From the NCBI RefSeq assembly GCF_036017915.1, contig NZ_CP107929.1, forward strand, positions 5,026,001-5,090,000: a DNA stretch of 64,000 nucleotides, written 5' to 3'. Within the stretch, counting starts at the first letter, position 1; the number at the start of each line of letters is the position of its first letter. The translations under genes were made by a program, and so were the position numbers. The notes beneath the pieces are model-generated. The model searched no databases, had not been told where the DNA came from, and saw only the letters and a program-made list of their open reading frames with translations. Source of the DNA: Micromonospora sp. NBC_00421 (lineage in GTDB: Bacteria > Actinomycetota > Actinomycetes > Mycobacteriales > Micromonosporaceae). This document shows positions 36,571 through 59,542 of the stretch, piece after piece.

Positions 36571-37731
36571 ATGGGCCATCTCGACGGCGGCACCGACTAC
36601 TTCAGCGACCCGCTCGGCGGGCTCGCCGACCAGCAGTGGGACGAGATGGCCGGCAACCGGTTCTACTCCTCGGCGTTCTGGCTGCGGCTGTGCGCGCTGG
36701 AGGGCGGGGGTGCCTCCGGCGGCGTCCACGTGACACTGCCCGACGGCGGGCGGGCGGGCGTGCCGGTGATCGCGGTCGGCGCGGATCCACACCCCAACTG
36801 CCGGTGGGGCACCATTCTCGCCGCCCACCACCTGCCGAGCCCTCCACCACAGGGCATCTACGTCGGACAGCGCCGCGGCTACCTGGCGAACCTGCTGACC
36901 TCGCCGGGAGCCGACCCGGTGGCGGCCGCCGGAAGGATCCTCGAGGAGGTCCGGTCGGCGCGCCCACCGGTGCCGCCCGCGTCGGCGTCCGCGCAGGTCG
37001 CCGTACACCTGACCACCCCGGACGTGCTGGCCTTCCGGGAGGCGGGGGTGACTGCGGAACCGGTCCTGTTGGCCGCCGACGCCTGGATCGGCATTCCGCC
37101 CGGCGGGTGGGAGGAGTGGCTGGAGTCGCTGGGCTCCCGGCACCGGATCCGTCGTATCCGCGCCGAGGTACGGCGGTTCGCACAGGCCGGCTACCGGGTT
37201 ACCCGGCGTACCCTCCGGGAGGCCTGGGCGGACGTGGCCCGGCTCGCGATCCACACCGAGCAACGCTACGGCCGGGCGGGTGACCCGTCCGTCTACTACG
37301 ACGGGTTCCGCAAGCAGGGCGAGTTGGCCGGGCCACGGGCCGAGGTCCTGCTCTGCGCCTACGACGACGAACCGCCGGTCGGCTGCTGCCTCTACTACCG
37401 CGACGGCGACACGGTCTACCTGCGGGCGGTGGGCTTCGACTACGAGCGGCTCCGGGGGGCCGCCGAGTACTTCAACCTGGCCTACCACCTTCCCGCCCGG
37501 CTACCCGGCGTGCGGTGGCTGCACGCCGGCGTCGCGACCCCGGACGGCAAGGCGCTGCGGGGCGCCGAGCTTCGTCCACTGTGGTTGCTGGACCTCTCGG
37601 CGACCAGCGTGCTGGACAAGCACCGCGACGAGATCCGGGACCACAACGCGGCCCTGCGGTCCGACCTGGCCGGGCGTTCGCCGGCGGTCGCGGCGGCCCT
37701 GGGCACGGCGGAGTGGGAGACCTTCTGCTGA
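36571..37731 (+). CDS. FemAB-like GNAT-fold transferase
   Basis: The 386-residue protein resembles FemAB/peptidoglycan-recognition acyltransferases with two GNAT-like halves. Visible patterns are WDEMAGNRFYSSAFWLRLC, RHRIRRIRAEVRRFAQAGYRV, CAYDDEPPVGCCLYYRDGD and FDYERLRGAAEYFNLAYHLP. Such enzymes transfer amino-acyl groups from tRNA or carrier proteins. It is the first gene of the cluster and lies 71 nt before the AMP-forming ligase. FemAB proteins are also found with the ligase-decarboxylase-ACP set of exosortase-A loci. GGAAGG precedes the ATG. Confidence 0.75.
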   Translation: MGHLDGGTDYFSDPLGGLADQQWDEMAGNRFYSSAFWLRLCALEGGGASGGVHVTLPDGGRAGVPVIAVGADPHPNCRWGTILAAHHLPSPPPQGIYVGQRRGYLANLLTSPGADPVAAAGRILEEVRSARPPVPPASASAQVAVHLTTPDVLAFREAGVTAEPVLLAADAWIGIPPGGWEEWLESLGSRHRIRRIRAEVRRFAQAGYRVTRRTLREAWADVARLAIHTEQRYGRAGDPSVYYDGFRKQGELAGPRAEVLLCAYDDEPPVGCCLYYRDGDTVYLRAVGFDYERLRGAAEYFNLAYHLPARLPGVRWLHAGVATPDGKALRGAELRPLWLLDLSATSVLDKHRDEIRDHNAALRSDLAGRSPAVAAALGTAEWETFC

Positions 37732-37802
37732 TCCGGCGGCCGGATCGCCCGCCGGTCCGCCCGCAGCGCTCACACACGACGAGGAAGGCGAGGTCGACCG
37801 GC

Positions 37803-39380
37803 ATGGGTGGTGCGATGACGACCCGGCATCTGTTCACGGTCCACGCCCTGCTGCACGACGCGGCCGGGACGTTCGGCGACGACCTCGCGGTGAGCGACGG
37901 CACGCGGTCGCTGTCCTTCGCCGAGCTGCGGGACGCGGCGCTGGCCACCGCGGCAGTCCTGGCGCGTCACGGCGTCCGGCGGGGCGACCGGGTGGGGATC
38001 TGCATGGCGAAGTCGGTCGACCAGGTGGTGGCGATCCTCGCCGTGTCGACGGCCGACGCGGTGATCGTGCCGATCCTGCCCACCCTCAAGGGCGACAACA
38101 TCCGGCACATCGTCCGGGACTCCGGGATGCGCACCGCGATAACGGACGACGTACGCGCCGACGAGCTGCGTACCTCCGTCCCCGTGCTTCCGCTGCTGCT
38201 CGCCGGGGACGTCTGCGTCGAGCCGGGCGACGCGGCTGCGCGGACCGACGGTGGTGCGGTGCCGCAACGCGCCATCGGCGACGACCTCGCGGGGATCATC
38301 TACTCCTCCGGCTCCACCGGCCGACCCAAGGGCATCATGGTGACCCATCGCAACGTCTGCGACGGCGCCCGGATCACCGTCCGGTACCTCGGCACCCGCC
38401 GCGACGACCGGATCGGCAGCGTCCTGTCCCTGAACTTCGACTACGGGTTGAACCAGCTCTGGCAGGCGCTGTACACCGGCGCCCAGCTCCATCTGCACGA
38501 GCTGGTGTTCCCCGCGGACCTGTTCCGTTTCCTGGCCGCCGAGCGCATCACCGTCCTGCCGGTCATGCCGGTCATCGTCACCCGGATGTTCAACCCCCGG
38601 TTGCTCCGGGAATGGCCGACCGGGGACCTCTCCGCCGTGCGCTACGTCTCGTCGTCCGGCGGCGCGGTGTCGCACCGCATGATCGAGAACCTCACCCGGG
38701 CCTTTCCGGTGGCGGAGGTCTTCCTCATGTACGGGCTGACCGAGGCGTTCCGCTCGACCTACCTGGAACCGGACCAGCTCGGTCGCCGTCCCACGTCGAT
38801 CGGTCGGGCGATTCCGGACGTGGAGATCCTCGTCCTCGACGAGCAGGGCCGCGAGGTCGGCCCGAACGAGCCCGGGGAACTCGTCCACCGGGGGGGCTGC
38901 ATCGCCAAGGGCTACTGGGAGGCCCCGGAGGAGACCGCGAAACGGTTCCGGACCCTGCCGGCGTACCCCGGCGAGACCGTGGTGTTCAGCGGCGACATGG
39001 TGACCCGGGACGAGGAGGGTTACCTGTACTTCCAGGGCCGGCGCGACGCGATGATCAAGACTTCGGGGTTCCGGGTCAGCCCGACCGAGGTGGAGGAGAC
39101 GGCCGCCCGGTTCCCCGGCGTCGACGCGTGCGTGGCGGTCGGCGTGCCGAACGTCGAGATCGGCGAGGACGTCGCCCTCGTCTACACCGTGAGCGCGCCG
39201 GTCGACGCGGGGGAGTTCCGGCGCTTCCTCGTCGACCACCTGCCGACCCACATGGTGCCGCACCGCCTGGTGCCGCGCCCGTCCCTGCCGGCCACCGGCA
39301 ACCAGGGCAAGATCGACAGGCAACGGGTACGGGACTCGCTGCTGAGCCCCGCCTCCGCCACCGACGGCGACCGGCCCTGA
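37803..39380 (+). CDS. AMP-forming acyl/aminoacyl ligase (exosortase-A-associated type)
   Basis: The 525-residue member of the ANL superfamily has motif A3 IIYSSGSTGRPKGIMVTH, motif A5 MYGLTEAFRSTYLEP, motif A7-A8 FSGDMVTRDEEGYLYF with KTSGFRVSPTEVEE, and the catalytic Lys in TGNQGKIDRQRV. The YGLTEAFRSTYL stretch is, as I recall, typical of ligases in exosortase-A polysaccharide loci, which occur with a PLP decarboxylase and ACP. Both partners are in this cluster (50684 and 52056). It probably activates an amino acid and loads the ACP, like VinN. The start could be 37803 or 37815. Confidence 0.88.
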   Translation: MGGAMTTRHLFTVHALLHDAAGTFGDDLAVSDGTRSLSFAELRDAALATAAVLARHGVRRGDRVGICMAKSVDQVVAILAVSTADAVIVPILPTLKGDNIRHIVRDSGMRTAITDDVRADELRTSVPVLPLLLAGDVCVEPGDAAARTDGGAVPQRAIGDDLAGIIYSSGSTGRPKGIMVTHRNVCDGARITVRYLGTRRDDRIGSVLSLNFDYGLNQLWQALYTGAQLHLHELVFPADLFRFLAAERITVLPVMPVIVTRMFNPRLLREWPTGDLSAVRYVSSSGGAVSHRMIENLTRAFPVAEVFLMYGLTEAFRSTYLEPDQLGRRPTSIGRAIPDVEILVLDEQGREVGPNEPGELVHRGGCIAKGYWEAPEETAKRFRTLPAYPGETVVFSGDMVTRDEEGYLYFQGRRDAMIKTSGFRVSPTEVEETAARFPGVDACVAVGVPNVEIGEDVALVYTVSAPVDAGEFRRFLVDHLPTHMVPHRLVPRPSLPATGNQGKIDRQRVRDSLLSPASATDGDRP

Positions 39381-39389
39381 CTTTACCGG

Positions 39390-40577
39390 TCAGGCCGGCC
39401 GGGTCCGGATGACGAAGCTCCGACGGGCCAGTTCGAGCCCGTCGTCGACCAGGGTCGGGTCGTCGGCCGAGAGGATGACGTAGGCACGCCGCTGTGCGGA
39501 CGACACCACCGGGGCGAGGACGTCGCCGACCCCCGCCAACACGCCGGCGCGTCGCACCGCCGGGTGGGCCCGCACCTCGTCCAGCCCCTCGATCGCCGTG
39601 ACGACGCCGGGTTCCGCGAGCGGGAAGTGCGCCGCGGCGTGGGCCACCCACCGCGGCGGTCGCTCCGGCAGCGGCATCGACATCGCCAGCCGGACGACCA
39701 TCTCGAACCAGTCGATGCCGTACGTCAGGCCGAGCAGGTCCATCAGGTAGTCGCCGGGCATCCGGACGGCCACCTCCATCACCGTGGCACCGGCGTCGGC
39801 CAGCCGGAACTCCAGATGCACGATGCCGCTGCCCATGCCGAGCGCGGCCAGGACGGACCGGCCGAAGCCGTCGACGGCCGCGCGCGTCACGTCGTCGACC
39901 GGCGCAGCCGTCCGGTGACCAGTCTCGACGAAGTACGGGGGACCGGTCGTAGCCTTGGCCGTGACGGTGGAGAACCAGACGGCACCCTCGTGGACCAGCG
40001 CCTCCCAGCTGTACTCCGACCCTTCGACGGCCTGCTCCACCAGCAGCGGCGTCTCGCCGGCACGGCGGCGTACGACGTCGGTCCACCCGCGCTCGCCCGC
40101 CACCAGTTCGACGCCGACGCTGCCCGCCGACGACAACGACTTCACCACCACCGGGAAGCGGGCGCCCGCCCACTGCCCCGCGGCGTTGAGGTCGGTGGCG
40201 ATGAGGTACTCGGGCTGCCGGATGCCGGCAGCGGCGAAACGGCCCCGTTGCAGCGCCTTGTTCCGCGACAGCACCGCCGCGCCCAGTGACGGGCCGGGCA
40301 ACGAGAAGGTCTCCGCCACCAGGGCGGCCGCCAGCACCTGCGGCTCGGTGAAGGCGACGACTCCGTCGGGCGTCCGCGCGGCGGTCGCCGAGGCGGCGGC
40401 CGCCGCCCAGGCCTCGTCGCTGTCGCCACTGGTCACCGTCAGGTGATCGGGTTGCTCCGGCAGCGCGGCTGCGGCGGCGGCCGTCTCCACGACGTGCACG
40501 CTCAGGCCCAGCCGACGCGCCGCGGCCAGGTAGGGCCGGCCCATGAGGCCGACCCCGATCAGCAACAACTCTCCCAA
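39390..40577 (-). CDS. ATP-grasp ligase 1
   Basis: This 395-residue ATP-grasp protein has an N-terminal preATP domain (LLLIGVGLMGRPYLAAARRL) and ATP-binding strands with FPVVVKSLSSAGSVGVELV and LLVEQAVEGSEYSWEALV. The metal-binding end contains GIVHLEFRLADAGATVMEVA. It resembles carboxylate-amine and L-amino-acid ligases, which form amide bonds through acyl phosphate. The TTG at 40577 was chosen because GGAGGAGG lies just upstream. It converges on the AMP ligase with a 9-nt gap. BtrJ-type loading of an amino acid onto an ACP is one possible role. Confidence 0.82.
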   Translation of the reverse strand: MGELLLIGVGLMGRPYLAAARRLGLSVHVVETAAAAAALPEQPDHLTVTSGDSDEAWAAAAASATAARTPDGVVAFTEPQVLAAALVAETFSLPGPSLGAAVLSRNKALQRGRFAAAGIRQPEYLIATDLNAAGQWAGARFPVVVKSLSSAGSVGVELVAGERGWTDVVRRRAGETPLLVEQAVEGSEYSWEALVHEGAVWFSTVTAKATTGPPYFVETGHRTAAPVDDVTRAAVDGFGRSVLAALGMGSGIVHLEFRLADAGATVMEVAVRMPGDYLMDLLGLTYGIDWFEMVVRLAMSMPLPERPPRWVAHAAAHFPLAEPGVVTAIEGLDEVRAHPAVRRAGVLAGVGDVLAPVVSSAQRRAYVILSADDPTLVDDGLELARRSFVIRTRPA

Positions 40578-40611
40578 CCCGTCCTCCTCCGTCACTTCCG
40601 ACCGGCGAACT

Positions 40612-40726
40612 CCGTCACTGCTGCCAGCAGCCCCCGACACTGCCCGTCGGCTGCCCCCGTCACTGCCCGTGGGCTGCCCCCGTCACCGCCTGGGGGCATC
40701 CTTCGTCACTGCCCGTGGGCATCCTC
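40612..40726. repeat. Intergenic minisatellite, five 23-bp copies
   Basis: Five contiguous copies of a 23-bp unit beginning CGTCACTGCCCGTGGGC lie at 40613-40634, 40635-40657, 40658-40680, 40681-40703 and 40704-40726. The middle and last copies are best conserved. They lie between the MFS gene and ATP-grasp ligase 1 on the same strand. The repeat is not a multiple of 3 and sits in non-coding DNA. Confidence 0.8.
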
Positions 40727-40763: not shown

Positions 40764-42104
40764 TCACCCGGCCGGGGACAGACGGCGTCCCACGACGACC
40801 GGCACGAGCGCCCCGGCGACGGCGAGCACCGCCCCCAGACCCAGCCAGCCGACCGCCCCGGCGGGCAGGACGACCGAGGTGAGCAGTGCCGGACCCACGA
40901 TCATCGCCCCGGTGGAGCCGAGACTGTAGAGCGACAGGTGGTAGCCGCGGCTGGCGTCGGGCGCATAGCCGTAGGACACGCCCCAGGCACCGACGGACTG
41001 GTAGATCTCGCCCACCGTCAGCGCCACGGTCGCCGCCAGGATCAGGGCCGCCGCCACGGCGGGCGCGCCCGAGCCGGTCACCGACACCAGCCCGCAGCAC
41101 ACGGCCAGGACGAGCCCGGCGTACACCTGGCGCGACGCGGCGGGTCGCAACCCGTCGACGCCCCGGCTCAGCCGCATCTGCAACGAGATCGCGAGCACGG
41201 TGTTGAGCACGACGACCGCGCCCACGAGTTCCACCGGCGCGTCCGTCCTGATCGTGATCCAGAGGGGCAGGCCGACGCTCAGGATCACGGCGTGCAGATA
41301 GAGCACGCCGTTGAGCAGAGCCAGCACGAGGAACCGGAGGCTGGGCCGGGTACGAAGCCCGGCCTGCTCCTGGTCGTCGGTCGGTGGCCGGACGACGGCC
41401 AGCCGGCCGCGCAACCGCAGCAGCAGAGCGCCGGAGACGAGGAAGGACACGGCGTCGAGGACGACGAGCGCCCGGTAGACGTCGCCGCCGCCCACGGCGA
41501 TGGCGATCGTCGCGGAGGCCGCGCCGAGGACGAAGCCGATGTTGCGGACCAGCATCACCGCGGCCATGGTGCGTACCCGCGCCGCCGGGGCGACGAGCGA
41601 GCCGAGCAGGCTCTGCACGACCGGGCCTGCCGCCCACTCGCCGGCACCGGCGAGGCAGCACACCACGAGGAACCAGGGCAGGCTGTCCACCATCGGGTAG
41701 GCGAAGAACCAGGTCGCCCGCCAGAACTGGAGGGCCACCAGGACCGGTAGTGCGCCGTACCGGTCCGAGAGGCGGCCGACGGGCACCGAGCACAGGAAGC
41801 CGGTGACGGCGGCCAGGGACAGGCCCAGGCCGACCTGCGCCGCGGTGAGCCCGATGTCCCGGGTGAAGAACAGCGCCGACCCGGTGAGGAACATGCCGGT
41901 GCCCAGGGAGTCGATGAACGACACGGCCAGCATCCGCCGGACCGCCGTCCCGTCCGGTAGCCAGCCGACGGCGAGGCGGACCACACGGCTGCGCATCCCG
42001 GCCGGAGCCGCCGGTCGGTCGTCGGCCCTCGGAGGGGCGTCGGTCGCCACTGCACCGGCGGACGGGTCGGGACCGGGAGTCTCGGGCGACCCGTCGTCGG
42101 CCAT
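40764..42104 (-). CDS. MFS exporter
   Basis: The 446-residue major facilitator has about 12 transmembrane helices. The first helix region has MLAVSFIDSLGTGMFLTGSA, and the loop motif SVPVGRLSDRYGALPVLVAL resembles MFS motif A. The N-terminal 40 residues are a Pro/Ala/Asp-rich cytoplasmic tail. It is the only transporter in the cluster and is the likely exporter or self-resistance pump for the product. ATG at 42104 follows GAGAGG. Confidence 0.87.
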   Translation of the reverse strand: MADDGSPETPGPDPSAGAVATDAPPRADDRPAAPAGMRSRVVRLAVGWLPDGTAVRRMLAVSFIDSLGTGMFLTGSALFFTRDIGLTAAQVGLGLSLAAVTGFLCSVPVGRLSDRYGALPVLVALQFWRATWFFAYPMVDSLPWFLVVCCLAGAGEWAAGPVVQSLLGSLVAPAARVRTMAAVMLVRNIGFVLGAASATIAIAVGGGDVYRALVVLDAVSFLVSGALLLRLRGRLAVVRPPTDDQEQAGLRTRPSLRFLVLALLNGVLYLHAVILSVGLPLWITIRTDAPVELVGAVVVLNTVLAISLQMRLSRGVDGLRPAASRQVYAGLVLAVCCGLVSVTGSGAPAVAAALILAATVALTVGEIYQSVGAWGVSYGYAPDASRGYHLSLYSLGSTGAMIVGPALLTSVVLPAGAVGWLGLGAVLAVAGALVPVVVGRRLSPAG

Positions 42105-42251
42105 GCGCGGGATCCTCTCGCACGAGTCGAAACGGATAGGCACTCGGCGATTTTTCTATCACAGTTCGTTCCCGCATGGTCGCCCTGTGACACGGAGGCG
42201 ACCGTCCGGGTGCCGGGCGCGTCGGGGTCGCCGATCGACCACGGCCACTGT

Positions 42252-42257: not shown

Positions 42258-42263
42258 GCACCG

Positions 42264-43562
42264 GTGAGCACCGCGTCGGCACTGCGCGCCAACTCCCGCT
42301 ATCTCCTGGTGCTCGGTGCCACCATGGCATTGCGTGAACGCGCGATCGTGGCAGCCGTCCGGAGCTTCCCCGGGCCGGTCGTCACGATCGCACCGACCGC
42401 GGCCACCCGGGCCGGCAAGTTCTTCGACCACGTCGTCCGGGGCGTCAGCAGTGACCCGGTGGCGGCCCTGGAGGCGGTGCGCGACCTCGAGAAGGAGACC
42501 GGCTGCACCCCGGCCGCCGTGGTGCCGTTCATCGACGGTGTGCTCGTCGCCGGCCTGGCCCTCGCCGAGCACTACGGCGTGCCCTACCTCAGCCGGGACG
42601 CGGTCGTCACCTCCTCCATCAACAAGAACCTGATGAAGGACCGGCTCCTGGCCGCCGGCCTCGACACGCCGCGGTACCGCCAGGTGGACAGCGTGGACGA
42701 GGTCCACCAGGCCATCGCGCAGTTCGGCCTGCCGTGTGTCATCAAGCCGTCGGCGTTCGGCGGCAGTCTCGGGGTCCGGTTGATCCGGTCGGCCGCCGAG
42801 GTGCCCGAGGCGTACGGGTACGTCCGGACGATCATCGACCAGACCGCCGCGACGTTCACCGTCAAGAACCGGTCGATCCAGGTGGAGCAGTTCTGCACCC
42901 TGACCGACGAGGTCTCGGTCGAGGTGCTCAACCACCGTGACCGCCGGGTCGCGCTCGCCGTGGTCGACAAGTCGCTCGGGCCGGAGCCCTACTTCGCCGA
43001 GATCGGGCACCGGGTGCCGAGCCGCTACTCCGACCGCGCCGACGTACGGGAGCTGGCGATCGCCTCGTGCGCCGCGATCGGCCTGGACCGGGGGCTCGCC
43101 CACGTCGAGATCCGGCTGGAGGACGGCCGGGATCCGCAGATCATCGAGGTGGGTGCGCGCACCGCCGGCGACGGCATCCTCGACCTCGTCGAACGCGCCC
43201 TCGGGATCTCACCGTACGAGCTGCACGTGCGCTCCTACCTGGACCAGCTCGACGAGCTGCCGCTGCCCGGGCCGGCTGTCGGAGTGGCGGCCATCGCCAC
43301 CCTGAAGGCGCGTCCGGGGCGGATGACCCGCATCGCCACGCCCACGACGGTGCCTCCCGCGGTGTCGAGTTACGAGGTCTTCGCCACCCCCGGTCACGTC
43401 TCCGCCGCCGTGTCGGCGAACTACCTGACCCGCGAGGGGTACGTCGAGTGCTTCTGGCCGGACGCCACCCCTGAGTCGGTGCCGCCCCGCGCCCACCTGG
43501 ACGTGGCCGACCAGTTGTCCGCCCAGCTCTTCGAGGTGACGGACGAGCCCGCCGACGCCTGA
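42264..43562 (+). CDS. ATP-grasp ligase 2
   Basis: This second, divergent ATP-grasp enzyme of 432 residues has an N-terminal preATP domain (YLLVLGATMALRERAIVAAV), a core with LPCVIKPSAFGGSLGVRLI, and a metal-site end with LAHVEIRLEDGRDPQIIEVG. It resembles L-amino-acid ligases. Two ATP-grasp enzymes in one cluster suggest two sequential amide bonds, or a loading plus a gamma-glutamyl protection step as in butirosin. The promoter appears to be leaderless. The gene ends 3 nt before the convergent mutL-like gene. Confidence 0.85.
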   Translation: MSTASALRANSRYLLVLGATMALRERAIVAAVRSFPGPVVTIAPTAATRAGKFFDHVVRGVSSDPVAALEAVRDLEKETGCTPAAVVPFIDGVLVAGLALAEHYGVPYLSRDAVVTSSINKNLMKDRLLAAGLDTPRYRQVDSVDEVHQAIAQFGLPCVIKPSAFGGSLGVRLIRSAAEVPEAYGYVRTIIDQTAATFTVKNRSIQVEQFCTLTDEVSVEVLNHRDRRVALAVVDKSLGPEPYFAEIGHRVPSRYSDRADVRELAIASCAAIGLDRGLAHVEIRLEDGRDPQIIEVGARTAGDGILDLVERALGISPYELHVRSYLDQLDELPLPGPAVGVAAIATLKARPGRMTRIATPTTVPPAVSSYEVFATPGHVSAAVSANYLTREGYVECFWPDATPESVPPRAHLDVADQLSAQLFEVTDEPADA

Positions 43563-43565: not shown

Positions 43566-44819
43566 TCAGCAGGGCGCCGGGCTCCGTGCCGGCACGTCCT
43601 GGAGGCCGTACGCCCACAGCAGGTAGCGGTGGTCGACCACCACGGCGCGCGGCGGTTCCACCCGGCCGGCGGCGGCCTCCACGACCCGGCGGATCTGCGC
43701 CGTCGACGCACCGCAGCGGGCACCGCCGGTGACGACGACGCTGGCCGCCCGACCGACGTCCACGAGGTGTGGGCCGTCCGGTGCCGCGAGCCGGCGCAGG
43801 GCCAGGAAGACGCAGCACAGGAAGCCCACCGGAGGCTTGAGCGCCGCCTGACGACCGGCGCACAGGTCGTGGTAGAGACCGCGGGACCGCTCCGGTGCCA
43901 CCGCCCGGACCAGGTCGAACAGGTCCGGATCGGCGGCGAGTCGGCCCAGCAGGGCGGGCCCGGAGGCGACGACACCGAGGTCGGTGAAGACATGCCGGAC
44001 GACGGAGCTGTCCGGCCCGGTGCCGCGCGCCGGATGCGCCCGGCGCAGCTCGGTGCAGGCGAAGGCGTCGGTGGTCGCGCCGCCCACGTCGATCAGGACG
44101 AACGGTGCGGTCACGCCGGGGAGAAGGAGACCTCGTCGACTCATCCGCTCCGCCGCCAGCCCGACGACTGCCGGGGTGGGCCAGATGGGCGTCTCGGTGA
44201 CGTCGGCCAGCGCGCCCAGACCCTTGCGACCGACGAGATCACTCGTGTAGATGTCTCGGACCAGCTCGGTGAGCCCACCGGGACGCGGTCGGAGGTGACG
44301 GTCGAGGACGTTGCTGGCGCTGCGGTGCGGCGGCAGCAGGGCGGTGACCTCGGGAGCGTCCACTCCGGCCCAGACCAGGATCTCGTGCGGATGGTCCGCG
44401 AGCCGCGCGCCGGCCAGCGCGGCGCGCAACCGGTGGTGGTCCCCGCCGTCGACCCCGCCGGTGAGGATCAGGACGTCCACCGGCGGGGCGGGCGGGCCGG
44501 ACAGGTCGGTGAGCACGCGTTCGTAACGGACGTTCCCGCCCGCGGCGACCGCCGCCCGGGCCGCCGCCGCCACGCTGTGCCGCCCGGAGAGTCCTAGTAC
44601 GCCGACGAGAACTCCCCCGCTGGCCGAGCTGCACACCCGCACGCCGGTCACCGCGTCCGTCAGCCGTCGGGCGGCGATCTCGACGACCTGGTCGCCGGGG
44701 CTGATGCCGGGAAGTCGAGGGATCCGCTGCACCGCCGAGAAGCGGTCGGCCCGCCACCTGGTGCACACCTTCACCACGGTGCTGCCCACGTCGACGAGCA
44801 GCGTTCCGGTGGAGGTCAC
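43566..44819 (-). CDS. mutL: MutL-like glutamate mutase reactivation protein
   Basis: The 417-residue protein of the glutamate-mutase accessory (MutL/GlmL) family has an actin-like ATPase fold. Evidence is the N-terminal LLVDVGSTVVKVCTRW, DVLILTGGVDGGDHHRL and FVLIDVGGATTDAF. Such proteins exchange damaged cobalamin in the mutase. The GTG start overlaps the glmE stop by 4 nt. The gene is the last of the four-gene rSAM-glmS-glmE-mutL operon. Confidence 0.9.
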   Translation of the reverse strand: MTSTGTLLVDVGSTVVKVCTRWRADRFSAVQRIPRLPGISPGDQVVEIAARRLTDAVTGVRVCSSASGGVLVGVLGLSGRHSVAAAARAAVAAGGNVRYERVLTDLSGPPAPPVDVLILTGGVDGGDHHRLRAALAGARLADHPHEILVWAGVDAPEVTALLPPHRSASNVLDRHLRPRPGGLTELVRDIYTSDLVGRKGLGALADVTETPIWPTPAVVGLAAERMSRRGLLLPGVTAPFVLIDVGGATTDAFACTELRRAHPARGTGPDSSVVRHVFTDLGVVASGPALLGRLAADPDLFDLVRAVAPERSRGLYHDLCAGRQAALKPPVGFLCCVFLALRRLAAPDGPHLVDVGRAASVVVTGGARCGASTAQIRRVVEAAAGRVEPPRAVVVDHRYLLWAYGLQDVPARSPAPC

Positions 44820-46219
44820 GCGAGGATCCGCACGTCGCGCAGCAGGCGTTCCCAGAGCGGGCTCCGGTCGTCGTGACGCGTGCCCAGCAGCTCGCGCTCG
44901 CGGCGGAGGTGGCTGCTGGAGAGCGGTACCGCACCGGGCGACAGGATGCGGATCCTCCGCCCCGGTCCACGGTCGGTGAGCAGCCGCCCGGCGTTCTGCT
45001 CGTGGGGCGCGAACGGCACGTCGAGGACCCCCGAGACGACGCACCGGTGCACCGCCGCGAGCAGGGATCCGGTCGCCTGCTGGAGCACGTGCTCCATCAC
45101 CTCGGTGACCTCGCCGTCGATCAGGTCGTCCTCCTCGTCGATGACCTCGCTCGACAGCGCGGCGGTGCCGGGGAACATGTCGAGCACGTACCGGACGGCA
45201 CGGACCGCAGCGGCGTTGGTCTCGACGCGGGGAATGCCGATCGCCTCCTCCGGCGTCTTGACCACCACCTTGTCGGCCCCCACCAGGCGGCTCAGCGCGG
45301 CCGAGACGGCGATGAGCTGCCAGGCCAGGGACGGCTCTGTGGGGAAGGCACCCATCCACTGGTGGTAGACGAGGCCGACCCGCACGTCGGGGCGGCCGGC
45401 GCGGGCCAGGAGCCGGGCGGCGTGCCGGCGCAGTACCCGGGCGATGGCGACGTCCTGTTCGAAGCTGCCGGTCTGGCCGAAGCTGACCGCGAACGACCGG
45501 ACGCCCTGTTCGGCGGCGAGGAGCAACTCGCAGAGCTGGACCACGACGGTCGTCACCGGCGGCACCAGGGTCGCCGTCAGCGGACCGAACGACTCCCGGT
45601 GGATCGGCGCGTCCGCGGGCCCGACCAGGGCGCAGAGGCGGTCCACGTACTGCCAGTGCACGAGGGCCCGGTCGACCGGGTAGCTCTTGGCGTAGGGCAG
45701 GGAGTAACACAGCCCGCCGCCCTCGATCTCGGTGATGCCGGAGGCCAGGGCCACCTCGGCGAGCAGCCGGGCGTCGGGGGTGCCGTGGCGCAGACTCACC
45801 GGGACGTCGACGCCCTCGTACAGGTCACGGGTACGGGCGAAGCCGTGACTGACCAACGGATACCCGTTCAGCAGGTCGTGCCCCTCGGCGTGACCGGCCT
45901 CCAGCAGCTTGCCGGCGGTGGCGTAGTCGTTGTGCCGGGTGTAGCTGTCGATCGTCAGCGGGATGAAGTCCGCGCCCGCCCGGTGCAGCGCCACGGTCAG
46001 TGCGCGCTGCTGGTCCCAGCCGGGGAAACCGCCCCGGGGCTGGATGTACGGCCGGTCCCGCTCCCGCTGGTAGGCGACCGAGGCGAAGCGGCTGCGGGGC
46101 AGTGACTCCAGATAGCGGCGGGCGGTCGACAGGTCGAGCTCGGTCGAGCCGCCGGCCCGGATGACCTGCGCCCGCTCGTCGTCGAGGTCGCCCAGGCAGG
46201 GGTCGTCAGGATCGGACAT
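44816..46219 (-). CDS. glmE: Methylaspartate (glutamate) mutase, large subunit E
   Basis: This 467-residue TIM-barrel subunit of the B12-dependent glutamate mutase converts L-glutamate to (2S,3S)-3-methylaspartate. Typical features are FIPLTIDSYTRHNDYATAG, DLLNGYPLVSHG, LRHGTPDARLLAEVALASG and SFGQTGSFEQDVAI. Length agrees with MutE (about 480). The ATG overlaps the end of glmS by 14 nt. Such mutases supply 3-methylaspartate in lipopeptide and vicenistatin biosynthesis, so this gene anchors the pathway model. Confidence 0.93.
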   Translation of the reverse strand: MSDPDDPCLGDLDDERAQVIRAGGSTELDLSTARRYLESLPRSRFASVAYQRERDRPYIQPRGGFPGWDQQRALTVALHRAGADFIPLTIDSYTRHNDYATAGKLLEAGHAEGHDLLNGYPLVSHGFARTRDLYEGVDVPVSLRHGTPDARLLAEVALASGITEIEGGGLCYSLPYAKSYPVDRALVHWQYVDRLCALVGPADAPIHRESFGPLTATLVPPVTTVVVQLCELLLAAEQGVRSFAVSFGQTGSFEQDVAIARVLRRHAARLLARAGRPDVRVGLVYHQWMGAFPTEPSLAWQLIAVSAALSRLVGADKVVVKTPEEAIGIPRVETNAAAVRAVRYVLDMFPGTAALSSEVIDEEDDLIDGEVTEVMEHVLQQATGSLLAAVHRCVVSGVLDVPFAPHEQNAGRLLTDRGPGRRIRILSPGAVPLSSSHLRRERELLGTRHDDRSPLWERLLRDVRILA

Positions 46220-49981: not shown

Positions 49982-50712
49982 CGGAGGAGAGGTCCGGCAC
50001 CATCGCCGCCGCCGTCACGCCGACGTTCGTCGACGTGCCGCCCCCGGCCCCGTTACGCCCCGACGAGGCGACGCCCGTCGCCGGTTTCCGCCTGGCCGCG
50101 ACGCCCACCACCGTCGGGCAGTACTGGCACTACCTCGTCGACCTGGGGCTGGACCGGTCCCCCGCACCGTTCCTGCACGGCCTTCCCGCCACCCCCGGCA
50201 CGGGTCTGCGCAGCACACCGGCCGGCACCGTGGAGATCGACCCGGACCTGGGCGACCTGCCGGCCACCTGGGTCACCTGGCACGGGGCGACCGCCTACTG
50301 CCGGTGGCTCGCCGGCCGGACGGGCGTGCCGTGCCGGCTACCCGACGCCGCCGAGTGGCGGCACGCCGCCGCCGGGCCCGCCGGCTTCCGCTGGGCGCTC
50401 GGCAACGACTTCGACCGGCCGGTGTACGCCCCCGCGGCGACCGGTCCACGGCCGGTCGGCCGTACCCCCGCCAACGGCTTCGGTCTACACGACATGACCG
50501 GAAACGTCTTCGAGTGGTGCCAGGATGCGCTGGACGCCCCCGACGGCCCGGAGGCGGGGAACCCCGGCTCACGTGTCATCAAGGGCGGGGCCTACACCGT
50601 CCGCAACCCGGAGAGTTTCGACAACGCCACCGTGTTCACCGCCGACGAGCTGAGCGCGGTGCCGTACATCGGCTTCCGGGTGCTCAGCTCCCCCGCACCG
50701 ACCCGGCGCTGA
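49978..50712 (+). CDS. SUMF1/FGE-fold protein B
   Basis: This second paralogue is 244 residues, with WHGATAYCRWLAGRTG, CRLPDAAEWRHAAAG, HDMTGNVFEWCQDALD and RVIKGGAYTVRNPESF. It lacks the FGE cysteine pair as well. The start ATG lies in the stop of A (ATGA). The 3' end overlaps the convergent PLP decarboxylase gene by 29 nt. A separate substrate-binding or oxidative role on a carrier-bound intermediate is a guess. Confidence 0.85.
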   Translation: MTEERSGTIAAAVTPTFVDVPPPAPLRPDEATPVAGFRLAATPTTVGQYWHYLVDLGLDRSPAPFLHGLPATPGTGLRSTPAGTVEIDPDLGDLPATWVTWHGATAYCRWLAGRTGVPCRLPDAAEWRHAAAGPAGFRWALGNDFDRPVYAPAATGPRPVGRTPANGFGLHDMTGNVFEWCQDALDAPDGPEAGNPGSRVIKGGAYTVRNPESFDNATVFTADELSAVPYIGFRVLSSPAPTRR

Positions 50713-51970
50713 GCGGCACGCCCAGCGCGACCGGCAGGTGGCCGCTCGCCAGCGTCCACGCCTCGACCACGTCGTCGCCGTCGACCACCACCTCCACCGC
50801 GGGGGGCCGGGAGAGGAACGCCGACAGCGCGGCGGTCGTCGCGTACGCGCCGACGTTCTCGACGCAGAGCAGGTCGCCGACGCGCGGGGCGGCGACCGTG
50901 GAGTTGACGGCGAGCCGGTCGAGCGGCGTGCAGAGCGGCCCGACGACGTCCACCGTGGTCGTCGCACCGTCCGGGTTCGACAGGTTGCGCAACCGGGTGC
51001 TCGGACGCAGCACCCGGCCCAGCCCGGACATGCCGCCCAGCACGTTCACCCCGGCGTCGACCACCAGCACGGTGCTCCCGCCCCGCTCCTTGACGTCCCG
51101 CACGGTGGTGAGCAGCCGTCCCGCCGCCGCGACCAGGCCACGACCGGACTCGAACCAGATCTCGGCACCGGTGGACGTCAACGGGGCAAGCACCGGGGGC
51201 AGGCCCACGGTGAGCGGGGTCAGGTCCGGCCCCTCGCCGGGTGCCGCGTACGGCCAGGGGAAGCCCCCGCCGACGTCGACCACGCGGGGCTGCACGCCGG
51301 ACGCCGCGGAGATCTCCCCCACCACGTCCACGACGTGCGCGAACGCGGCGAGCAGGTCGTCGGGCGTGGGCAGCTGGGAGCCCAGGTAGCAGTGGAAGCC
51401 GAGGACCTCGACCCCCGCGCCCGGTCGCCGGCAGAAGTCGACCGCCTCGTCCGGCAGGAATCCGAACTGCCGACCGTCCGCCATGGACAGGCCGGCCGCC
51501 GGACGGCTCGGCGGCTGGACCCGGACCACGACCGGGAGGGGATCGGCCGGACCGGGCCGTACGGCCTCGCGGAGCCGGGCCACCTCCACCGCCGACTCGC
51601 AGGACAGGACGGCTCCGGCGGCCACCGCCGCCCGGAGCTCGGCGATCGACTTGCCCGGGCCGGTGTAGAGCAGCCGGCCTGGTGGTGCCCCGGTGCCCAG
51701 CGCCACGGAGAGCTCGCCGAGAGAGGAGACCTCACTGCCGCAGCCTGCGGCCTGGAGGGCGGCGACGACCGGTGGGAGCGGGTTGGCCTTGAGCGAGTAG
51801 AGCAGGAGCGCGTCGGCCGGCAGCACCCGCCGCAGTTCCTCGGCCCGTCGGCGCAGCACGGCCCGGTCGTGCACGAGCAGCGGGGTCGACAGTTCGGCCG
51901 CGAGGTGCCGCAAAGCCGACTCCGATGAATGGTCGATCGACGGTCGCAGGTCTTCCAGCGGCTCGCTCAC
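50684..51970 (-). CDS. Type III PLP-dependent decarboxylase (Orn/DAP/Arg family, exosortase-A/VinO/BtrK-like)
   Basis: This 428-residue alanine-racemase-fold decarboxylase has the Schiff-base Lys61 in LLYSLKANP, DVGGGFPWPYA, and GPLCTPLD with the active-site Cys and Asp. The pocket motif FHCYLGSQ has Tyr where lysA-type enzymes have His. In VinO and BtrK, homologues decarboxylate an amino acid tethered to an ACP, and the ACP gene here lies 86 nt away, divergent. The GTG start has no ribosome binding site but a TACAGT box 7 nt upstream. Confidence 0.9.
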   Translation of the reverse strand: MSEPLEDLRPSIDHSSESALRHLAAELSTPLLVHDRAVLRRRAEELRRVLPADALLLYSLKANPLPPVVAALQAAGCGSEVSSLGELSVALGTGAPPGRLLYTGPGKSIAELRAAVAAGAVLSCESAVEVARLREAVRPGPADPLPVVVRVQPPSRPAAGLSMADGRQFGFLPDEAVDFCRRPGAGVEVLGFHCYLGSQLPTPDDLLAAFAHVVDVVGEISAASGVQPRVVDVGGGFPWPYAAPGEGPDLTPLTVGLPPVLAPLTSTGAEIWFESGRGLVAAAGRLLTTVRDVKERGGSTVLVVDAGVNVLGGMSGLGRVLRPSTRLRNLSNPDGATTTVDVVGPLCTPLDRLAVNSTVAAPRVGDLLCVENVGAYATTAALSAFLSRPPAVEVVVDGDDVVEAWTLASGHLPVALGVPLSAGSVRGS

Positions 51971-51977
51971 GTGCGTT

Positions 51978-51983
51978 ACTGTA
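51978..51983 (-). promoter_or_regulatory. -10 box of a leaderless promoter for the PLP decarboxylase
   Basis: TACAGT on the minus strand fits TANNNT and ends 7 nt before the GTG at 51970. It lies in the divergent region shared with the ACP gene. Confidence 0.5.
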
Positions 51984-52055
51984 GCCGGGAGTTCATGAGC
52001 CGCGACGGCTGATTTCAGGCAGTTCGGCCGGTTTTCCCGGGCGACGAGCGAGAAA

Positions 52056-52337
52056 ATGCAGGAGCTCATGGGCGACGTGCAGGCGACGGAGACGGCAGTC
52101 CGCGACAGGCTTCAGGCGGTGCTCGCCAATCATTTGCGAAAAATCCCCGAGGGCACCGACTGGACCAGCGTCCCCCTACCAGATCTTGGCCTCGATTCAC
52201 TGTCGGCAATCGATCTGGTGATCGATATCGAGGAGACCTTCGGCGCGGAGTTCCCCGCCAATCTTCTCGTCCGCGAGACATTCGCGACTTTCGCTGCTCT
52301 TGAAGCGGTGGTCACCGCGATGGTGCGGTCGGCGTAA
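52056..52337 (+). CDS. Stand-alone acyl carrier protein
   Basis: The 93-residue ACP has the phosphopantetheine site Ser48 in LPDLGLDSLSAIDL and a typical helix IDIEETFGAEFP. It is not part of a PKS or NRPS megasynthase. The neighbouring decarboxylase and P450 are likely to act on its cargo, and the ligase at 37803 to load it. The start may be 52056 or 52068. It is 26 nt upstream of the P450 gene and is probably in one operon with it. Confidence 0.9.
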   Translation: MQELMGDVQATETAVRDRLQAVLANHLRKIPEGTDWTSVPLPDLGLDSLSAIDLVIDIEETFGAEFPANLLVRETFATFAALEAVVTAMVRSA

Positions 52338-52363: not shown

Positions 52364-53734
52364 GTGGCCGTCTCGACCGAGCATCGACGGCGGCGTCTGC
52401 CGGGGCCGAGCGGGCCGGGTCACCTGCGGTACGTCCGCGGCCTGCTGGGGCGCCCCTACGACGCCCTGCTCGACCTGCACCAGCGCTACGGGCCGGTGTG
52501 CGCCTTCGGGTTCGGTCCGCAGCGCTACGTGCTGCTCTTCGGCGCCGAGGCCAATCAACTGCTGCTGACCGACAATCCGGCCCGGCCCCGGTTCCTCTCC
52601 CGGGACGTGCTCAGTCTGCTGATCCCGGTGGTCGGCGCGCGCGCCATGGTGGTCAGCGACGGAGAGGACCACCGGCGGCGACGTGCCCTGGTGCGGCCCG
52701 CGTTCGTCCGCCGACGGATCGAGGGCTACGTCCCGGTGATGGTCGACGAGATCCATCGCATGATCGGGAGCTGGCAGGTGGGCGGCACGGTCGACGCCTT
52801 CGACGCCGTACGCTCCTGCATCCGGCGGATCGCGATCCGGTCGCTCTTCGGTGACCGGCTCCAGGCCCACACCGACCAGATCGGCCGGGAACTCGAGACG
52901 GCGCTGCGATACATCAACCGTTCGCCGTTCCTCCGGTTCGACCACGACCTGCCCGGCACCGCGTACCGCCGGGCGATGGCCGCCCGGGGTCGGGTCGACG
53001 AGCTGGTCCGGGCGGAGGTCGCCAAGCGCCGCGCCGAGCCCGAGGACCGGGGCGACGTCCTCGACGCGCTGCTCGCCGCCTCCGCCGACGACGGCGACCA
53101 CCTCGCCGACCTGGAGATCCGCGACCAGGTGATCAGCCTGATCGCCTCCGGGTACGACTCCAGCAGTTCCGCCGCGGGCTGGGCGGTGTACGCCCTGCTC
53201 AGCCATCCCGAGGTGTACGACCGGGTGCGCGCCGAGGTGGGCCGGGTCGCCGGCGACGAGCCGCTGACGGCCGCCCTGCTGGGCGACCTGACCTACGTGG
53301 GCTGGACGGTGTCGGAGATCCTGCGTCTCTACACTCCCGGCGTGCTGACCGGGCGCTCCACGATCACCGACGTCGAGTTCGCCGGTGAGCTGATCCCCGC
53401 CGGCAGCAAGGTCCTCTATTCCCAGTACGTGACCCACCGGTTACCCCGGCACTGGGCCGACCCGTTGACCTTCCGTCCCGAAAGATGGAATCGTGACGCG
53501 CCTGACCATCGGGAGCCCGACCCGTTCAGCTTCGTTCCCTTCGGTGGCGGTTACCGCAAGTGCATCGGCTGGGCGTTCGCTGAGCTGGAGTTACGGGCAC
53601 TGATCGCGGAACTCGCCCGCTGTACGCAGTTGTCGCTCGCCGGGCCACCGGTCGAGCCCACCGGCGTGGCCACCATGTGGCCCCGGGGAGGCGTACCGGT
53701 CACGGTGCGGAGCGTAGAATGCGCCAGAGGCTGA
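52364..53734 (+). CDS. Cytochrome P450
   Basis: The 456-residue P450 has the heme motif FGGGYRKCIG with the Cys ligand, the ExxR in VSEILRLY, and the PERW meander region. The I-helix reads ASGYDSSSSAAGW, with Ser where the usual acid-Thr pair has Thr. No membrane anchor is seen. It is co-transcribed with the ACP and probably hydroxylates an ACP-bound amino acid or acyl chain. GAGGAG precedes the GTG start. Confidence 0.92.
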   Translation: MAVSTEHRRRRLPGPSGPGHLRYVRGLLGRPYDALLDLHQRYGPVCAFGFGPQRYVLLFGAEANQLLLTDNPARPRFLSRDVLSLLIPVVGARAMVVSDGEDHRRRRALVRPAFVRRRIEGYVPVMVDEIHRMIGSWQVGGTVDAFDAVRSCIRRIAIRSLFGDRLQAHTDQIGRELETALRYINRSPFLRFDHDLPGTAYRRAMAARGRVDELVRAEVAKRRAEPEDRGDVLDALLAASADDGDHLADLEIRDQVISLIASGYDSSSSAAGWAVYALLSHPEVYDRVRAEVGRVAGDEPLTAALLGDLTYVGWTVSEILRLYTPGVLTGRSTITDVEFAGELIPAGSKVLYSQYVTHRLPRHWADPLTFRPERWNRDAPDHREPDPFSFVPFGGGYRKCIGWAFAELELRALIAELARCTQLSLAGPPVEPTGVATMWPRGGVPVTVRSVECARG

Positions 53735-53755: not shown

Positions 53756-53869
53756 CCCCCGGGGCCTGACCCGGTTCGCGCCCGTCCCGTGCCAGCCGGG
53801 CAGGCGGCGGTGCCTCTCGCCGATGGGCCCGACCCCATCTGCGGAGTCTGCGACCAACCGAGGTGTCGA

Positions 53870-57496
<3,627 letters not shown>

Positions 57497-57679
57497 ACCG
57501 CCAGGACGGTTTCGGCAACGACGCCGATCATCGTCCGATCATCGACACGGGGTACACCGTGATCGATGGCGGACCTACTGTGGACCTCAACCGGTGGGCT
57601 GTCGACGTCTAGACTGGGGCATCCGGTCACGTCGATGTCCACACGTCGACCACAGCCTCCCGTCCGGAAGGAAACCGCC

Positions 57680-58786
57680 GTGTCCGACGACACGCTCCAG
57701 TCGTTTCCCCACCTCCGCACGCTGTTCGACAAGGAGATCGCCGACGGCGTCGAGACCGGTGTCCAGTTGTCGATCTCGCACGCCGGCGTCCGCCACGACA
57801 TCGCCGTCGGCGACGACGGGCTGGGCTCGCCGCTCACCCCGGACACGTGGGTGCCCTGGACCTGCTCGTCGAAGCCGCTCGGCGCGCTGGCCTTCGCCCG
57901 TGCCTGGGAGAGCGGCCTGCTCGGCCTCGACGACCGGGTCGCCGCGCACCTTCCCGAGTACGGCGAGGGCGGCAAGGACGCCGTCCGGGTGCGGGACCTG
58001 CTGACCCACACCACGGGTGTGCCGGACCCCCTGCTCATGCTCGACACGGACGGCCAGGAGCTGCCGGACTGGGATCAGGCGCAGGCGTTGGTCTGGATGG
58101 TGGTCTGCGCCGCCGAGACTCAGCAGCGGCCGGGCACGTCGATGAGCTACAACCCGATCACGAACTGGTTCGTGCTGGACCGGCTGCTCACCACCATCGA
58201 CGGGACCGCCCCGGGGGACAGCTACCGGTCCATGTTCTCGTTGCTCGGCATCTCGGCGACCCTCGGGCTCGACGGGGACGTGGCGCCGCCGGTCGCGCCG
58301 GTCGCCTCGCCGGAGGAGGCCGTCGGGCTGGAGAAGATGGTCATGGCGGCCCGGCTGCCGCTGCCCGGCACGGGGGTCTGGGGCAGCATGCGCGACCTGC
58401 GGTGCGTCGGCGAGGCGCTGCTCACCGGCCGGGCCGCCGACGGCACCGAGGTCGCCCGGCGGGCCACCATCGAGGCGTTGACGGCGACGCACTGGCCCGG
58501 CACGGTCCGCAGCGCCCTCTCGGACACCGACTTCGCGTACGGTCTGGGGTTCATGACCCTGCCCCATCTGCTGGGTCGCGCCTGCTCGTTCCGCGCCTAC
58601 GGCCACGCCGGCGGCAACACCTCCAGCCTGGTGGTGGATCCGGACGCCGAGCTCGTGATGGCCATGTACTGGAACGGGCGGCTGGCCGACGTACCGACGG
58701 TCACCCGCCGGCACGCCCTGGTCGAGGCCGTCTACGCCGACCTGGAAATCCACCGGCCTGCGGTCCAGTCACCGCAGGGCGCCTGA
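57680..58786 (+). CDS. Serine hydrolase of the beta-lactamase/PBP fold with altered nucleophile motif
   Basis: The 368-residue protein resembles class C beta-lactamase-like esterases: LLTHTTGVPDPL, SYNPITNWFVLDRLL, and YGHAGGNTSSLVVDP near the end. The SxxK motif expected in the first third reads WTCSSKPLG, so Cys62 sits at the nucleophile position before Lys65. The YxN region reads YNP. It may be an amidase, esterase or transacylase working with the cluster, or an inactive paralogue. GTG at 57680 has GGAAGGAAA upstream. It ends in a strong hairpin. Confidence 0.85.
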   Translation: MSDDTLQSFPHLRTLFDKEIADGVETGVQLSISHAGVRHDIAVGDDGLGSPLTPDTWVPWTCSSKPLGALAFARAWESGLLGLDDRVAAHLPEYGEGGKDAVRVRDLLTHTTGVPDPLLMLDTDGQELPDWDQAQALVWMVVCAAETQQRPGTSMSYNPITNWFVLDRLLTTIDGTAPGDSYRSMFSLLGISATLGLDGDVAPPVAPVASPEEAVGLEKMVMAARLPLPGTGVWGSMRDLRCVGEALLTGRAADGTEVARRATIEALTATHWPGTVRSALSDTDFAYGLGFMTLPHLLGRACSFRAYGHAGGNTSSLVVDPDAELVMAMYWNGRLADVPTVTRRHALVEAVYADLEIHRPAVQSPQGA

Positions 58787-58813
58787 CCCCGACGGTCGTC
58801 GGGGCCAGGCGCC
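58778..58813 (+). terminator. Two-part hairpin overlapping the serine hydrolase stop
   Basis: GGCGCCTG (58778-58785) pairs with CAGGCGCC (58806-58813), and CCCCGACG (58787-58794) with CGTCGGGG (58797-58804). Only one mismatched pair separates the two stems, and the loop is GT. The stop codon lies within it. Confidence 0.6.
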
Positions 58814-58867
58814 GCGGAGGGTGTCCTTCCGGTGCACTCACCGGCCGGGCAGGGCGTGGCGGTGGCC

Positions 58868-59542
58868 TCAGCGGCCGACGGACCGGGCGACGCGGAACCC
58901 CACGTCGTCGATGCGCAGACTCGGGTGGCTGCGCCGACGGACGGACGCCCGGCAACTCCACTGCTCGTCGAACCAGCCACCACCGCGCAGCACCCGGTAG
59001 CTGCCGTAGACCTCGGCGTCGTAGACGTCCCAGCACCAGTTCCAGACGTTGCCGAGCATGTCGTGAAGGCCCCACACGTTGGGCAGTTTGCCGCCCACCT
59101 CGTGGAGGCGTTCGCCGGAGTTGCCGCGGTACCAGGCGATGTCGTCGAGCGGGCCGTAGCGCGGGCCGGCGGTTCCGGCGCGGCACGCGTACTCCCACTC
59201 CGCCTCGGTCGGCAACCGGTAGCCGTCGGCGGCGGTGTCCCAGCCGGCATGCTCGTCGGCGGCGCGCAGGCGGTAGGCCGGGGTCAGGCCGTCGCGTGCC
59301 GACAGCGCGTTGCAGAACTCGGCGGCGTCCCACCACGACACGCTCTCCACGGGCAGCGAGTCGCCGGTGGCGACGCTCGGCCGCCGGCCGGTGACCTCGG
59401 CGTAGCACCGTTGGGTCACCGGACAGGCGGCGATCTCGTACGCCCCGAGGCCCACCTCCCAGGAACGCTGGGTCCGGCGGTCCGACAGCGTGACCTGGCC
59501 GGCGGGAATCCGGACCATCTCGGTGTACGGCCCATCGCTCAT
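58868..59542 (-). CDS. SUMF1/FGE-fold protein C
   Basis: A third protein of this fold, 224 residues, has AGQVTLSDRRTQRSWEVGLG, VESVSWWDAAEFCNALSARD, GYRLPTEAEWEYACRAGT, LHDMLGNVWNWCWDVYD and VLRGGGWFDEQWSCRASV. It keeps one of the two cysteines of the FGE region and is closer to ordinary family members than A or B. ATG at 59542 is preceded by sequence rich in CGAT with no strong ribosome binding site. Its role is unknown; three copies near one cluster is unusual. Confidence 0.87.
   Translation of the reverse strand: MSDGPYTEMVRIPAGQVTLSDRRTQRSWEVGLGAYEIAACPVTQRCYAEVTGRRPSVATGDSLPVESVSWWDAAEFCNALSARDGLTPAYRLRAADEHAGWDTAADGYRLPTEAEWEYACRAGTAGPRYGPLDDIAWYRGNSGERLHEVGGKLPNVWGLHDMLGNVWNWCWDVYDAEVYGSYRVLRGGGWFDEQWSCRASVRRRSHPSLRIDDVGFRVARSVGR

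What the first reader, a model, noticed from the sequence alone, without database searches (positions are those of the whole stretch)
36571..59542. Candidate undescribed biosynthetic gene cluster built on glutamate mutase and a lone carrier protein
Within 23 kb are glutamate mutase with its reactivator, an AMP-forming ligase, a stand-alone ACP, a PLP decarboxylase, two ATP-grasp ligases, a P450, an LLM flavoprotein, a radical SAM enzyme, a FemAB-like transferase, an MFS exporter and three SUMF1-fold proteins, with no PKS or NRPS. The model is 3-methylaspartate formation, ACP loading, decarboxylation to a 3-amino-2-methylpropionyl-type unit, oxidation, ligation and export. I know of no described cluster with this exact set.
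Basis: partly seen in the sequence, partly recalled or inferred. Interest (0 to 1): 0.9.

Follow-up and report, generated by a model that had tools for sequence, protein, structure and literature searches.

The report
Conserved orphan beta-amino-acid gene cluster
This bacterium carries a set of about sixteen genes, found together in other actinobacteria though often in another order, that probably builds and exports a small molecule from a rearranged form of glutamate by a route that I could not match to a described pathway.

Summary
The gene set is real and co-conserved. Nine other actinobacterial genomes hold homologous clusters, eight with 13-16 of the 16 genes; the ninth (S. coffeae, split by contig ends) shows 11, without mutase. 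The third SUMF1 protein is not part. No ketosynthase or condensation domain lies in the window. Active-site residues support the first steps: mutase site 9 of 9, ligase VinN D230/S299/R331 10 of 10, ACP and decarboxylase intact. So 3-methylaspartyl-ACP decarboxylated to 3-aminoisobutyryl-ACP, as in vicenistatin but without PKS, is likely. The FemAB-like protein is predicted to fold like aminoacyl-tRNA-dependent peptide synthases; the beta-lactamase-fold protein has Cys for the catalytic Ser in 91 of 91 assessable close homologs. Later steps and product are unknown. Ten searches of openly licensed papers showed no cluster with this set; MIBiG and antiSMASH could not be run.

The parts
36571..37731 (+). 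FemAB-like double-GNAT transferase, predicted aminoacyl-tRNA-dependent
   Evidence: Pfam Acetyltransf_6 3e-5; AF2 mean pLDDT 84.8; first Foldseek hits Sbb17 and Sba18; in 10 of 10 clusters
37803..39380 (+). VinN-like AMP-forming ligase, predicted to load a beta-amino acid on the ACP (start 37803 or 37815)
   Evidence: AMP-binding 8e-79; pocket region best matches VinN 3wv4/3wvn; VinN D230, S299, R331 kept 10 of 10, F231->Y and K330->F 10 of 10
39390..40640 (-). ATP-grasp, L-amino-acid-ligase-like protein 1 (accessory)
   Evidence: ATP-grasp_4, LAL_C2; 60-86% in 4 of 9 other genomes; about 30% hits in 4 more, the one in S. xanthophaeus being its ATPg2 gene
40764..42143 (-). MFS exporter
   Evidence: MFS_1 2e-23; 61-85% in 4 of 9 others; other MFS genes beside the S. 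lichenis and M. parastrephiae clusters
42264..43562 (+). ATP-grasp ligase 2
   Evidence: ATP-grasp_4 2e-15; 59-90% in 8 of 9 others, only a 26% relative in M. parastrephiae
43566..44819 (-). GlmL/MutL-like partner of glutamate mutase (start uncertain)
   Evidence: MutL 6e-28, GlmL NF040745 2e-22, below cut-off; 9 of 10 clusters
44816..46219 (-). Glutamate mutase E subunit
   Evidence: Met_asp_mut_E 1e-124; R66, R100, R149, E171, Y177, Y181 of C. cochlearium GlmE kept in 9 of 9
46206..46673 (-). Divergent glutamate mutase S subunit, DxHxxA in place of DxHxxG (start uncertain)
   Evidence: 9 of 9 sequences
46673..47722 (-). Radical SAM/SPASM protein, CNFRCDYC (start uncertain)
   Evidence: Radical_SAM 1e-18; 74-92% identity in 9 of 9 other genomes
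47932..48885 (-). LLM (luciferase-like, SsuD-like) flavoprotein (start uncertain)
   Evidence: no Pfam hit at 1e-3; NCBIfam SsuD 4e-13, below cut-off; PDB SsuD-type chains, best 1e-14; 10 of 10
49052..49981 (+). FGE/SUMF1-fold protein 1 (start uncertain)
   Evidence: FGE-sulfatase 2e-39; 10 of 10
49978..50712 (+). FGE/SUMF1-fold protein 2, next to FGE1 in 10 of 10
   Evidence: FGE-sulfatase 3e-27
50684..52069 (-). PLP-dependent decarboxylase of the DAP decarboxylase/BtrK/TIGR03099 kind
   Evidence: YSLKAN 10 of 10
52056..52337 (+). Stand-alone acyl carrier protein (LDSL)
   Evidence: PP-binding 4e-8; Ser invariant in 10 of 10
52364..53734 (+). Cytochrome P450
   Evidence: p450 4e-65; haem motif 10 of 10
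53789..57496 (+). Methionine synthase MetH, the only one found in this genome; inside the interval, not a core gene
57680..58786 (+). Beta-lactamase-fold protein with Cys in place of the SxxK serine
   Evidence: Beta-lactamase 1e-38; CSSK in 9 of 9 aligned, Cys in 91 of 91 assessable of 94 close homologs; 10 of 10 clusters

Best explanation
It is a biosynthetic gene cluster, independent of PKS and NRPS, for a small, probably peptide-like, exported metabolite. Glutamate mutase (MutS/MutE, kept active by the GlmL-like protein) turns L-glutamate into 3-methylaspartate; the VinN-like ligase loads it through its side-chain carboxylate on the lone ACP; the PLP decarboxylase removes the alpha-carboxylate to give 3-aminoisobutyryl-ACP. 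These steps are inferred from homology and kept residues. The later part is weaker inference: the Fem-type transferase adds an amino acid from a charged tRNA (in the place of VinM capping), LLM, P450 and radical SAM enzymes modify the carrier-bound or released unit, the cysteine-type beta-lactamase-fold protein transfers or releases the acyl chain, ATP-grasp enzymes add further amide bonds, and the MFS protein exports the product.
For: Co-conservation of 16 genes in nine other genomes: 16, 16, 14, 14, 14, 16, 16 and 13 at 38% identity or more in eight, 11 on two contigs in the ninth. Mutase site residues 9 of 9. Ligase: VinN is the best PDB match of the pocket region, with no gap in the KR loop; D230, S299, R331 kept 10 of 10 (residue roles from passages of PMC11253843). 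ACP Ser 10 of 10. Decarboxylase matches DAP decarboxylases and BtrK, motif 10 of 10. Fem fold: first Foldseek hits Sbb17/Sba18. Cys for Ser 91 of 91. No KS or condensation domain in the window. The same first steps are described for vicenistatin (passages of PMC11284099).
Against: F231 and K330 of VinN are Tyr and Phe in 10 of 10 ligases, so the substrate may differ. For the whole ligase, linear gramicidin synthetase ranks above VinN in the PDB; for the decarboxylase, two DAP decarboxylases rank above BtrK. The best NCBIfam models of ligase and decarboxylase are exosortase-associated families, both below cut-off. The S subunit departs from DxHxxG. S. coffeae has ten core genes but no close MutE in its genome (best 40%, another contig), though its cluster is cut by contig ends. 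No flavin reductase or ferredoxin was recognised among the scanned window ORFs. No product, expression or enzyme data.
Confidence: 0.62

Rival explanations
1. 3-Methylaspartate is built in whole, for example by an ATP-grasp ligase, while ligase, ACP and decarboxylase handle another amino acid.
For: F231Y and K330F in the ligase pocket, 10 of 10; best NCBIfam families TIGR03098/TIGR03099 are hypothetical equivalogs; S. coffeae keeps ligase, ACP and decarboxylase without a mutase found nearby.
Against: D230, S299 and R331 kept 10 of 10; mutase genes lie with ligase, ACP and decarboxylase in 9 of 10 clusters.
Confidence: 0.2
2. The locus makes a 3-aminoisobutyrate starter for a remote PKS, that is, a displaced macrolactam pathway.
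For: Same first enzymes as vicenistatin; the genome has 95 ketosynthase-family matches, all outside the window; A. auranticolor has PKS genes about 7 kb beyond its cluster.
Against: One AMP ligase and no acyltransferase among the 30 window ORFs scanned; the nearest strong ketosynthase matches are over 500 kb away. Of 20 neighbour genes of relatives scanned only the two A. auranticolor ones were PKS; many neighbours were not scanned.
Confidence: 0.06
3. A RiPP cluster built on the radical SAM/SPASM protein.
For: SPASM domain; the RiPP P450 ApyO is among the P450's relatives, below cut-off.
Against: A crude ORF comparison (about 60 aa or more) found no further ORF shared by all clusters; gaps between genes as drawn are at most 206 bp, starts uncertain; a RiPP needs no carrier protein.
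Confidence: 0.04
4. Unrelated gene sets lie side by side by chance.
For: Genes on both strands; MetH and the third SUMF1 protein are indeed not shared by most relatives.
Against: Recurrence in ten genomes with changed order.
Confidence: 0.02

Closest known systems
Vicenistatin starter-unit genes (VinH/VinI, VinN, VinL, VinO, VinM, VinK)
   Same: Glutamate mutase, beta-amino-acid ligase with three key residues kept, stand-alone ACP, PLP decarboxylase
   Different: No second ligase, acyltransferase or PKS seen in the window; adds Fem-type transferase, ATP-grasp, LLM, P450, radical SAM, FGE-fold and Cys-type beta-lactamase-fold proteins
Butirosin side-chain genes (BtrI, BtrJ, BtrK named in PMC11405602 passages; their exact roles and BtrO, BtrH, BtrG recalled)
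   Same: ACP with a BtrK-like decarboxylase; ATP-grasp and LLM proteins present; a BtrH_N protein lies beside the cluster in M. parastrephiae
   Different: Loading by an AMP ligase is predicted instead of ATP-grasp; a mutase supplies the amino acid; no BtrH among scanned window ORFs
Aminoacyl-tRNA-dependent GNAT-fold transferases (VlmA, PacB, DhpH/DhpK, Orf11; Sbb17/Sba18)
   Same: Predicted double-GNAT fold, natural-product setting
   Different: No sequence match to PDB chains at E 1; tRNA use not tested
Exosortase-A-associated ligase and decarboxylase families TIGR03098 and TIGR03099
   Same: Best NCBIfam matches of ligase and decarboxylase
   Different: Below the curated cut-offs; no exosortase among the scanned ORFs

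Membership tests
Vicenistatin-type 3-aminoisobutyrate module | Glutamate mutase E and S | tested here: met
   by sequence
Vicenistatin-type 3-aminoisobutyrate module | Ligase with VinN D230, S299, R331 | tested here: met
   10 of 10; but F231->Y and K330->F in 10 of 10
Vicenistatin-type 3-aminoisobutyrate module | Stand-alone ACP and ACP-acting PLP decarboxylase | tested here: met
   by sequence only:
Vicenistatin-type 3-aminoisobutyrate module | VinM second ligase, VinK acyltransferase, PKS | tested here: not met
   one AMP-binding ORF and no acyltransferase among 30 scanned ORFs of 28.8-63.9 kb; no KS in the window; ORFs of 1-28.8 kb not scanned
Butirosin-type side-chain pathway | BtrI-like ACP and BtrK-like decarboxylase | tested here: met
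   (BtrK 7ru7 and 2j66, third and fourth after two DAP decarboxylases)
Butirosin-type side-chain pathway | BtrJ-type ATP-grasp acting on the ACP; BtrO-type hydroxylation | tested here: inconclusive
   superfamily members present; roles not testable
Butirosin-type side-chain pathway | BtrH transferase | tested here: not met
   none among the scanned window ORFs; a BtrH_N protein only beside the M. parastrephiae cluster
FemABX-type aminoacyl-tRNA-dependent transferase | Double-GNAT fold | tested here: met
   on a predicted model
FemABX-type aminoacyl-tRNA-dependent transferase | Use of aminoacyl-tRNA | not testable with these tools
   needs an assay
PF00144 SxxK serine hydrolase | Nucleophilic serine | tested here: not met
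   Cys in 9 of 9 and in 91 of 94 close homologs, 3 fragments lacking the site; 24 of 26 more distant listed proteins have Ser, 2 Cys
Glutamate mutase S subunit | DxHxxG cobalamin motif | tested here: not met
   DIHVVA in 9 of 9
Formylglycine-generating enzyme | Catalytic Cys pair near the C terminus (recalled) | tested here: not met
   no such conserved pair in the FGE1 and FGE2 alignments

The most novel reading that the evidence does not exclude
An actinobacterial cluster family makes a new class of ACP-tethered beta-amino-acid metabolites with neither PKS nor NRPS: amino-acid capping from charged tRNA, oxidation on the carrier, and release or transfer by a beta-lactamase-fold enzyme that uses cysteine instead of serine.
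Probability: 0.35. Interest if true: 0.78.

Novelty: new variant of a known kind. Interest (0 to 1): 0.58.

Why it matters
Clusters without PKS, NRPS or RiPP hallmarks are easily missed by rule-based mining. This one recurs in ten genomes of at least four genera, and relatives of two of its proteins are numerous in metagenome collections, so a product of some use to its makers is likely. The first three steps could be tested with the assays known from vicenistatin, and the invariant Ser-to-Cys change is a direct biochemical question.

Tried and rejected
Rejected as members: the third SUMF1 protein (58868-59746; best hits fall on FGE1 in all nine stretches with a hit), the Ser/Thr kinase (34430-36304), GH6 and SOD, none with a hit in the relatives' fetched stretches.

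MetH: inside the interval here and in M. sonchi; an N-terminal MetH stretch follows FGE2 at a contig end in S. coffeae; no hit in the fetched stretches of the other seven genomes, though M. parastrephiae has its MetH on the same contig some 33 kb from the cluster. Read as lineage-specific; self-resistance and one-carbon supply are untested ideas.

A small protein (about 80 aa) beside the beta-lactamase-fold gene in five clusters looked to me like an ACP without serine; the profile comparison (probability 0.9%) and fold search (best E 4.8; a carrier protein third at E 6.5) did not support it.

RiPP reading: no shared further ORF by a crude caller. Plasmid search: six records, at most 1% of the query covered. 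PADLOC: the radical SAM protein hit viperin models over part of its length (best 57 bits, residues 21-131), read as the shared radical SAM core.

Literature: ten searches of openly licensed papers, seen as listings, three of them empty; passages seen of PMC10662134, PMC11284099, PMC11253843, PMC11405602, PMC12087186 and PMC12945691. No cluster with this set appeared; this is weak evidence of absence.
Full report
What is there. The window is 5,026,001-5,090,000 of a single-contig 7.23 Mb genome. ORFs chosen by third-position G+C and a few others, 30 in all from 28.8 to 63.9 kb, were scanned with Pfam and 20 of them with NCBIfam. Between 36571 and 58786 lie the Fem-type protein, AMP ligase, two ATP-grasp ligases, MFS, GlmL-like protein, MutE, a divergent MutS (read), radical SAM, LLM protein, two FGE-fold proteins, PLP decarboxylase, ACP, P450, MetH and a beta-lactamase-fold protein. 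Several neighbours touch or overlap by a few bases; start codons of MutL, MutS, radical SAM, LLM, FGE1 and the ligase are uncertain.

Co-conservation. MutE matched in 57 of 300 genomes of the family sample, the own genome included; apart from it only two were above 42% identity, G282 at 90% and G192 at 70%. Both carry the cluster; stretches around MutE in nine genomes of the about-40% group do not. An alignment of the radical SAM protein against genome contigs gave ten loci: eight at 74-92% identity, and two Oscillospiraceae loci at 22% that I dropped. Of the 16 genes (MetH not counted) they hold, in this order and at 38% identity or more, 16, 16, 14, 13, 14, 16, 14, 16, and 11 on two contigs. 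Counting the window, FemAB, ligase, radical SAM, LLM, FGE1, FGE2, PLP, ACP, P450 and the beta-lactamase-fold gene occur in 10 of 10; MutS, MutE, MutL and ATPg2 in 9 of 10; ATPg1 and this MFS in 5 of 10. Order is the same in the window, G282 and M. sonchi and partly or largely changed in the others. Taken as neighbours among the 16 genes, other genes between them passed over, FGE1/FGE2 and beta-lactamase/P450 are kept 10 times and radical SAM-MutS-MutE-MutL 9 times. The window's outer neighbours are not shared. The cluster is rare: in a class-wide sample 1 of 394 genomes, the own one, had the radical SAM protein at 1e-40. Protein searches listed many metagenome relatives of the radical SAM and beta-lactamase-fold proteins; their gene context was not seen.

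First steps. MutE aligns to C. cochlearium glutamate mutase; R66, R100, R149, E171, Y177 and Y181 (species and roles recalled, positions checked) are invariant in 9 of 9. MutS has DIHVVA where DxHxxG is expected, 9 of 9. The ligase pocket region best matches VinN, though whole-length the best PDB match is linear gramicidin synthetase. VinN D230, S299 and R331 are kept in 10 of 10 ligases, while F231 is Tyr and K330 is Phe in 10 of 10 (residue roles from passages of PMC11253843). The decarboxylase matches DAP decarboxylases, then BtrK, with YSLKAN in 10 of 10. The ACP serine is invariant, 10 of 10. Vicenistatin makes 3-aminoisobutyryl-ACP by these steps (passages of PMC11284099). I infer the same unit here.

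Limits. No ketosynthase or condensation match lies in the window, but A. auranticolor has PKS genes about 7 kb beyond its cluster. In S. coffeae the best MutE is a 40% protein on another contig; its cluster is cut by contig ends, so absence is not proven. MIBiG and antiSMASH were not available, and the ten paper searches covered only openly licensed papers.

Noticed in passing
window 53789-57496: The only methionine synthase (PF02965) found in this genome lies between P450 and the beta-lactamase-fold gene; M. sonchi has a 90% copy in the same place plus another elsewhere; S. coffeae has a MetH start after FGE2 at a contig end and a MetH end at the start of the contig holding ATPg2.
   Followed up: partly
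L082:6959-8583 and L091:10772-12432: A methenyl-THF cyclohydrolase-like (FchA) and FolD gene pair lies by the cluster in A. auranticolor and S. coffeae; each genome has further FolD copies.
   Followed up: partly
L091:7674-7925, L086:322-579, L089:13121-13354, L080:16290-16541, L082:12029-12256: Conserved, predicted helical protein of about 80 aa next to the beta-lactamase-fold gene in five clusters; fold and role unknown.
   Followed up: yes
L057:1-869 and L078:33-932: In M. parastrephiae the P450 matches in two overlapping pieces and the GlmL-like protein ends early: sequencing errors or decay.
   Followed up: no
L077:2462-6378: BtrH_N protein, ACP, AMP ligase and acyl-CoA dehydrogenase-like gene beside the M. 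parastrephiae cluster, resembling a prolyl-to-pyrrole loading set (resemblance recalled).
   Followed up: partly
L005-L011, L013, L014: A separate group of MutE/MutS pairs (about 40% identity) in the family; in several of the nine genomes looked at AMP ligase or P450 matches lie near, probably other methylaspartate clusters.
   Followed up: no
L076:14497-16294 and L082:17814-19546: A ThiF-like protein and a neighbour without NCBIfam match are shared by the M. sonchi flank and the A. auranticolor cluster.
   Followed up: no
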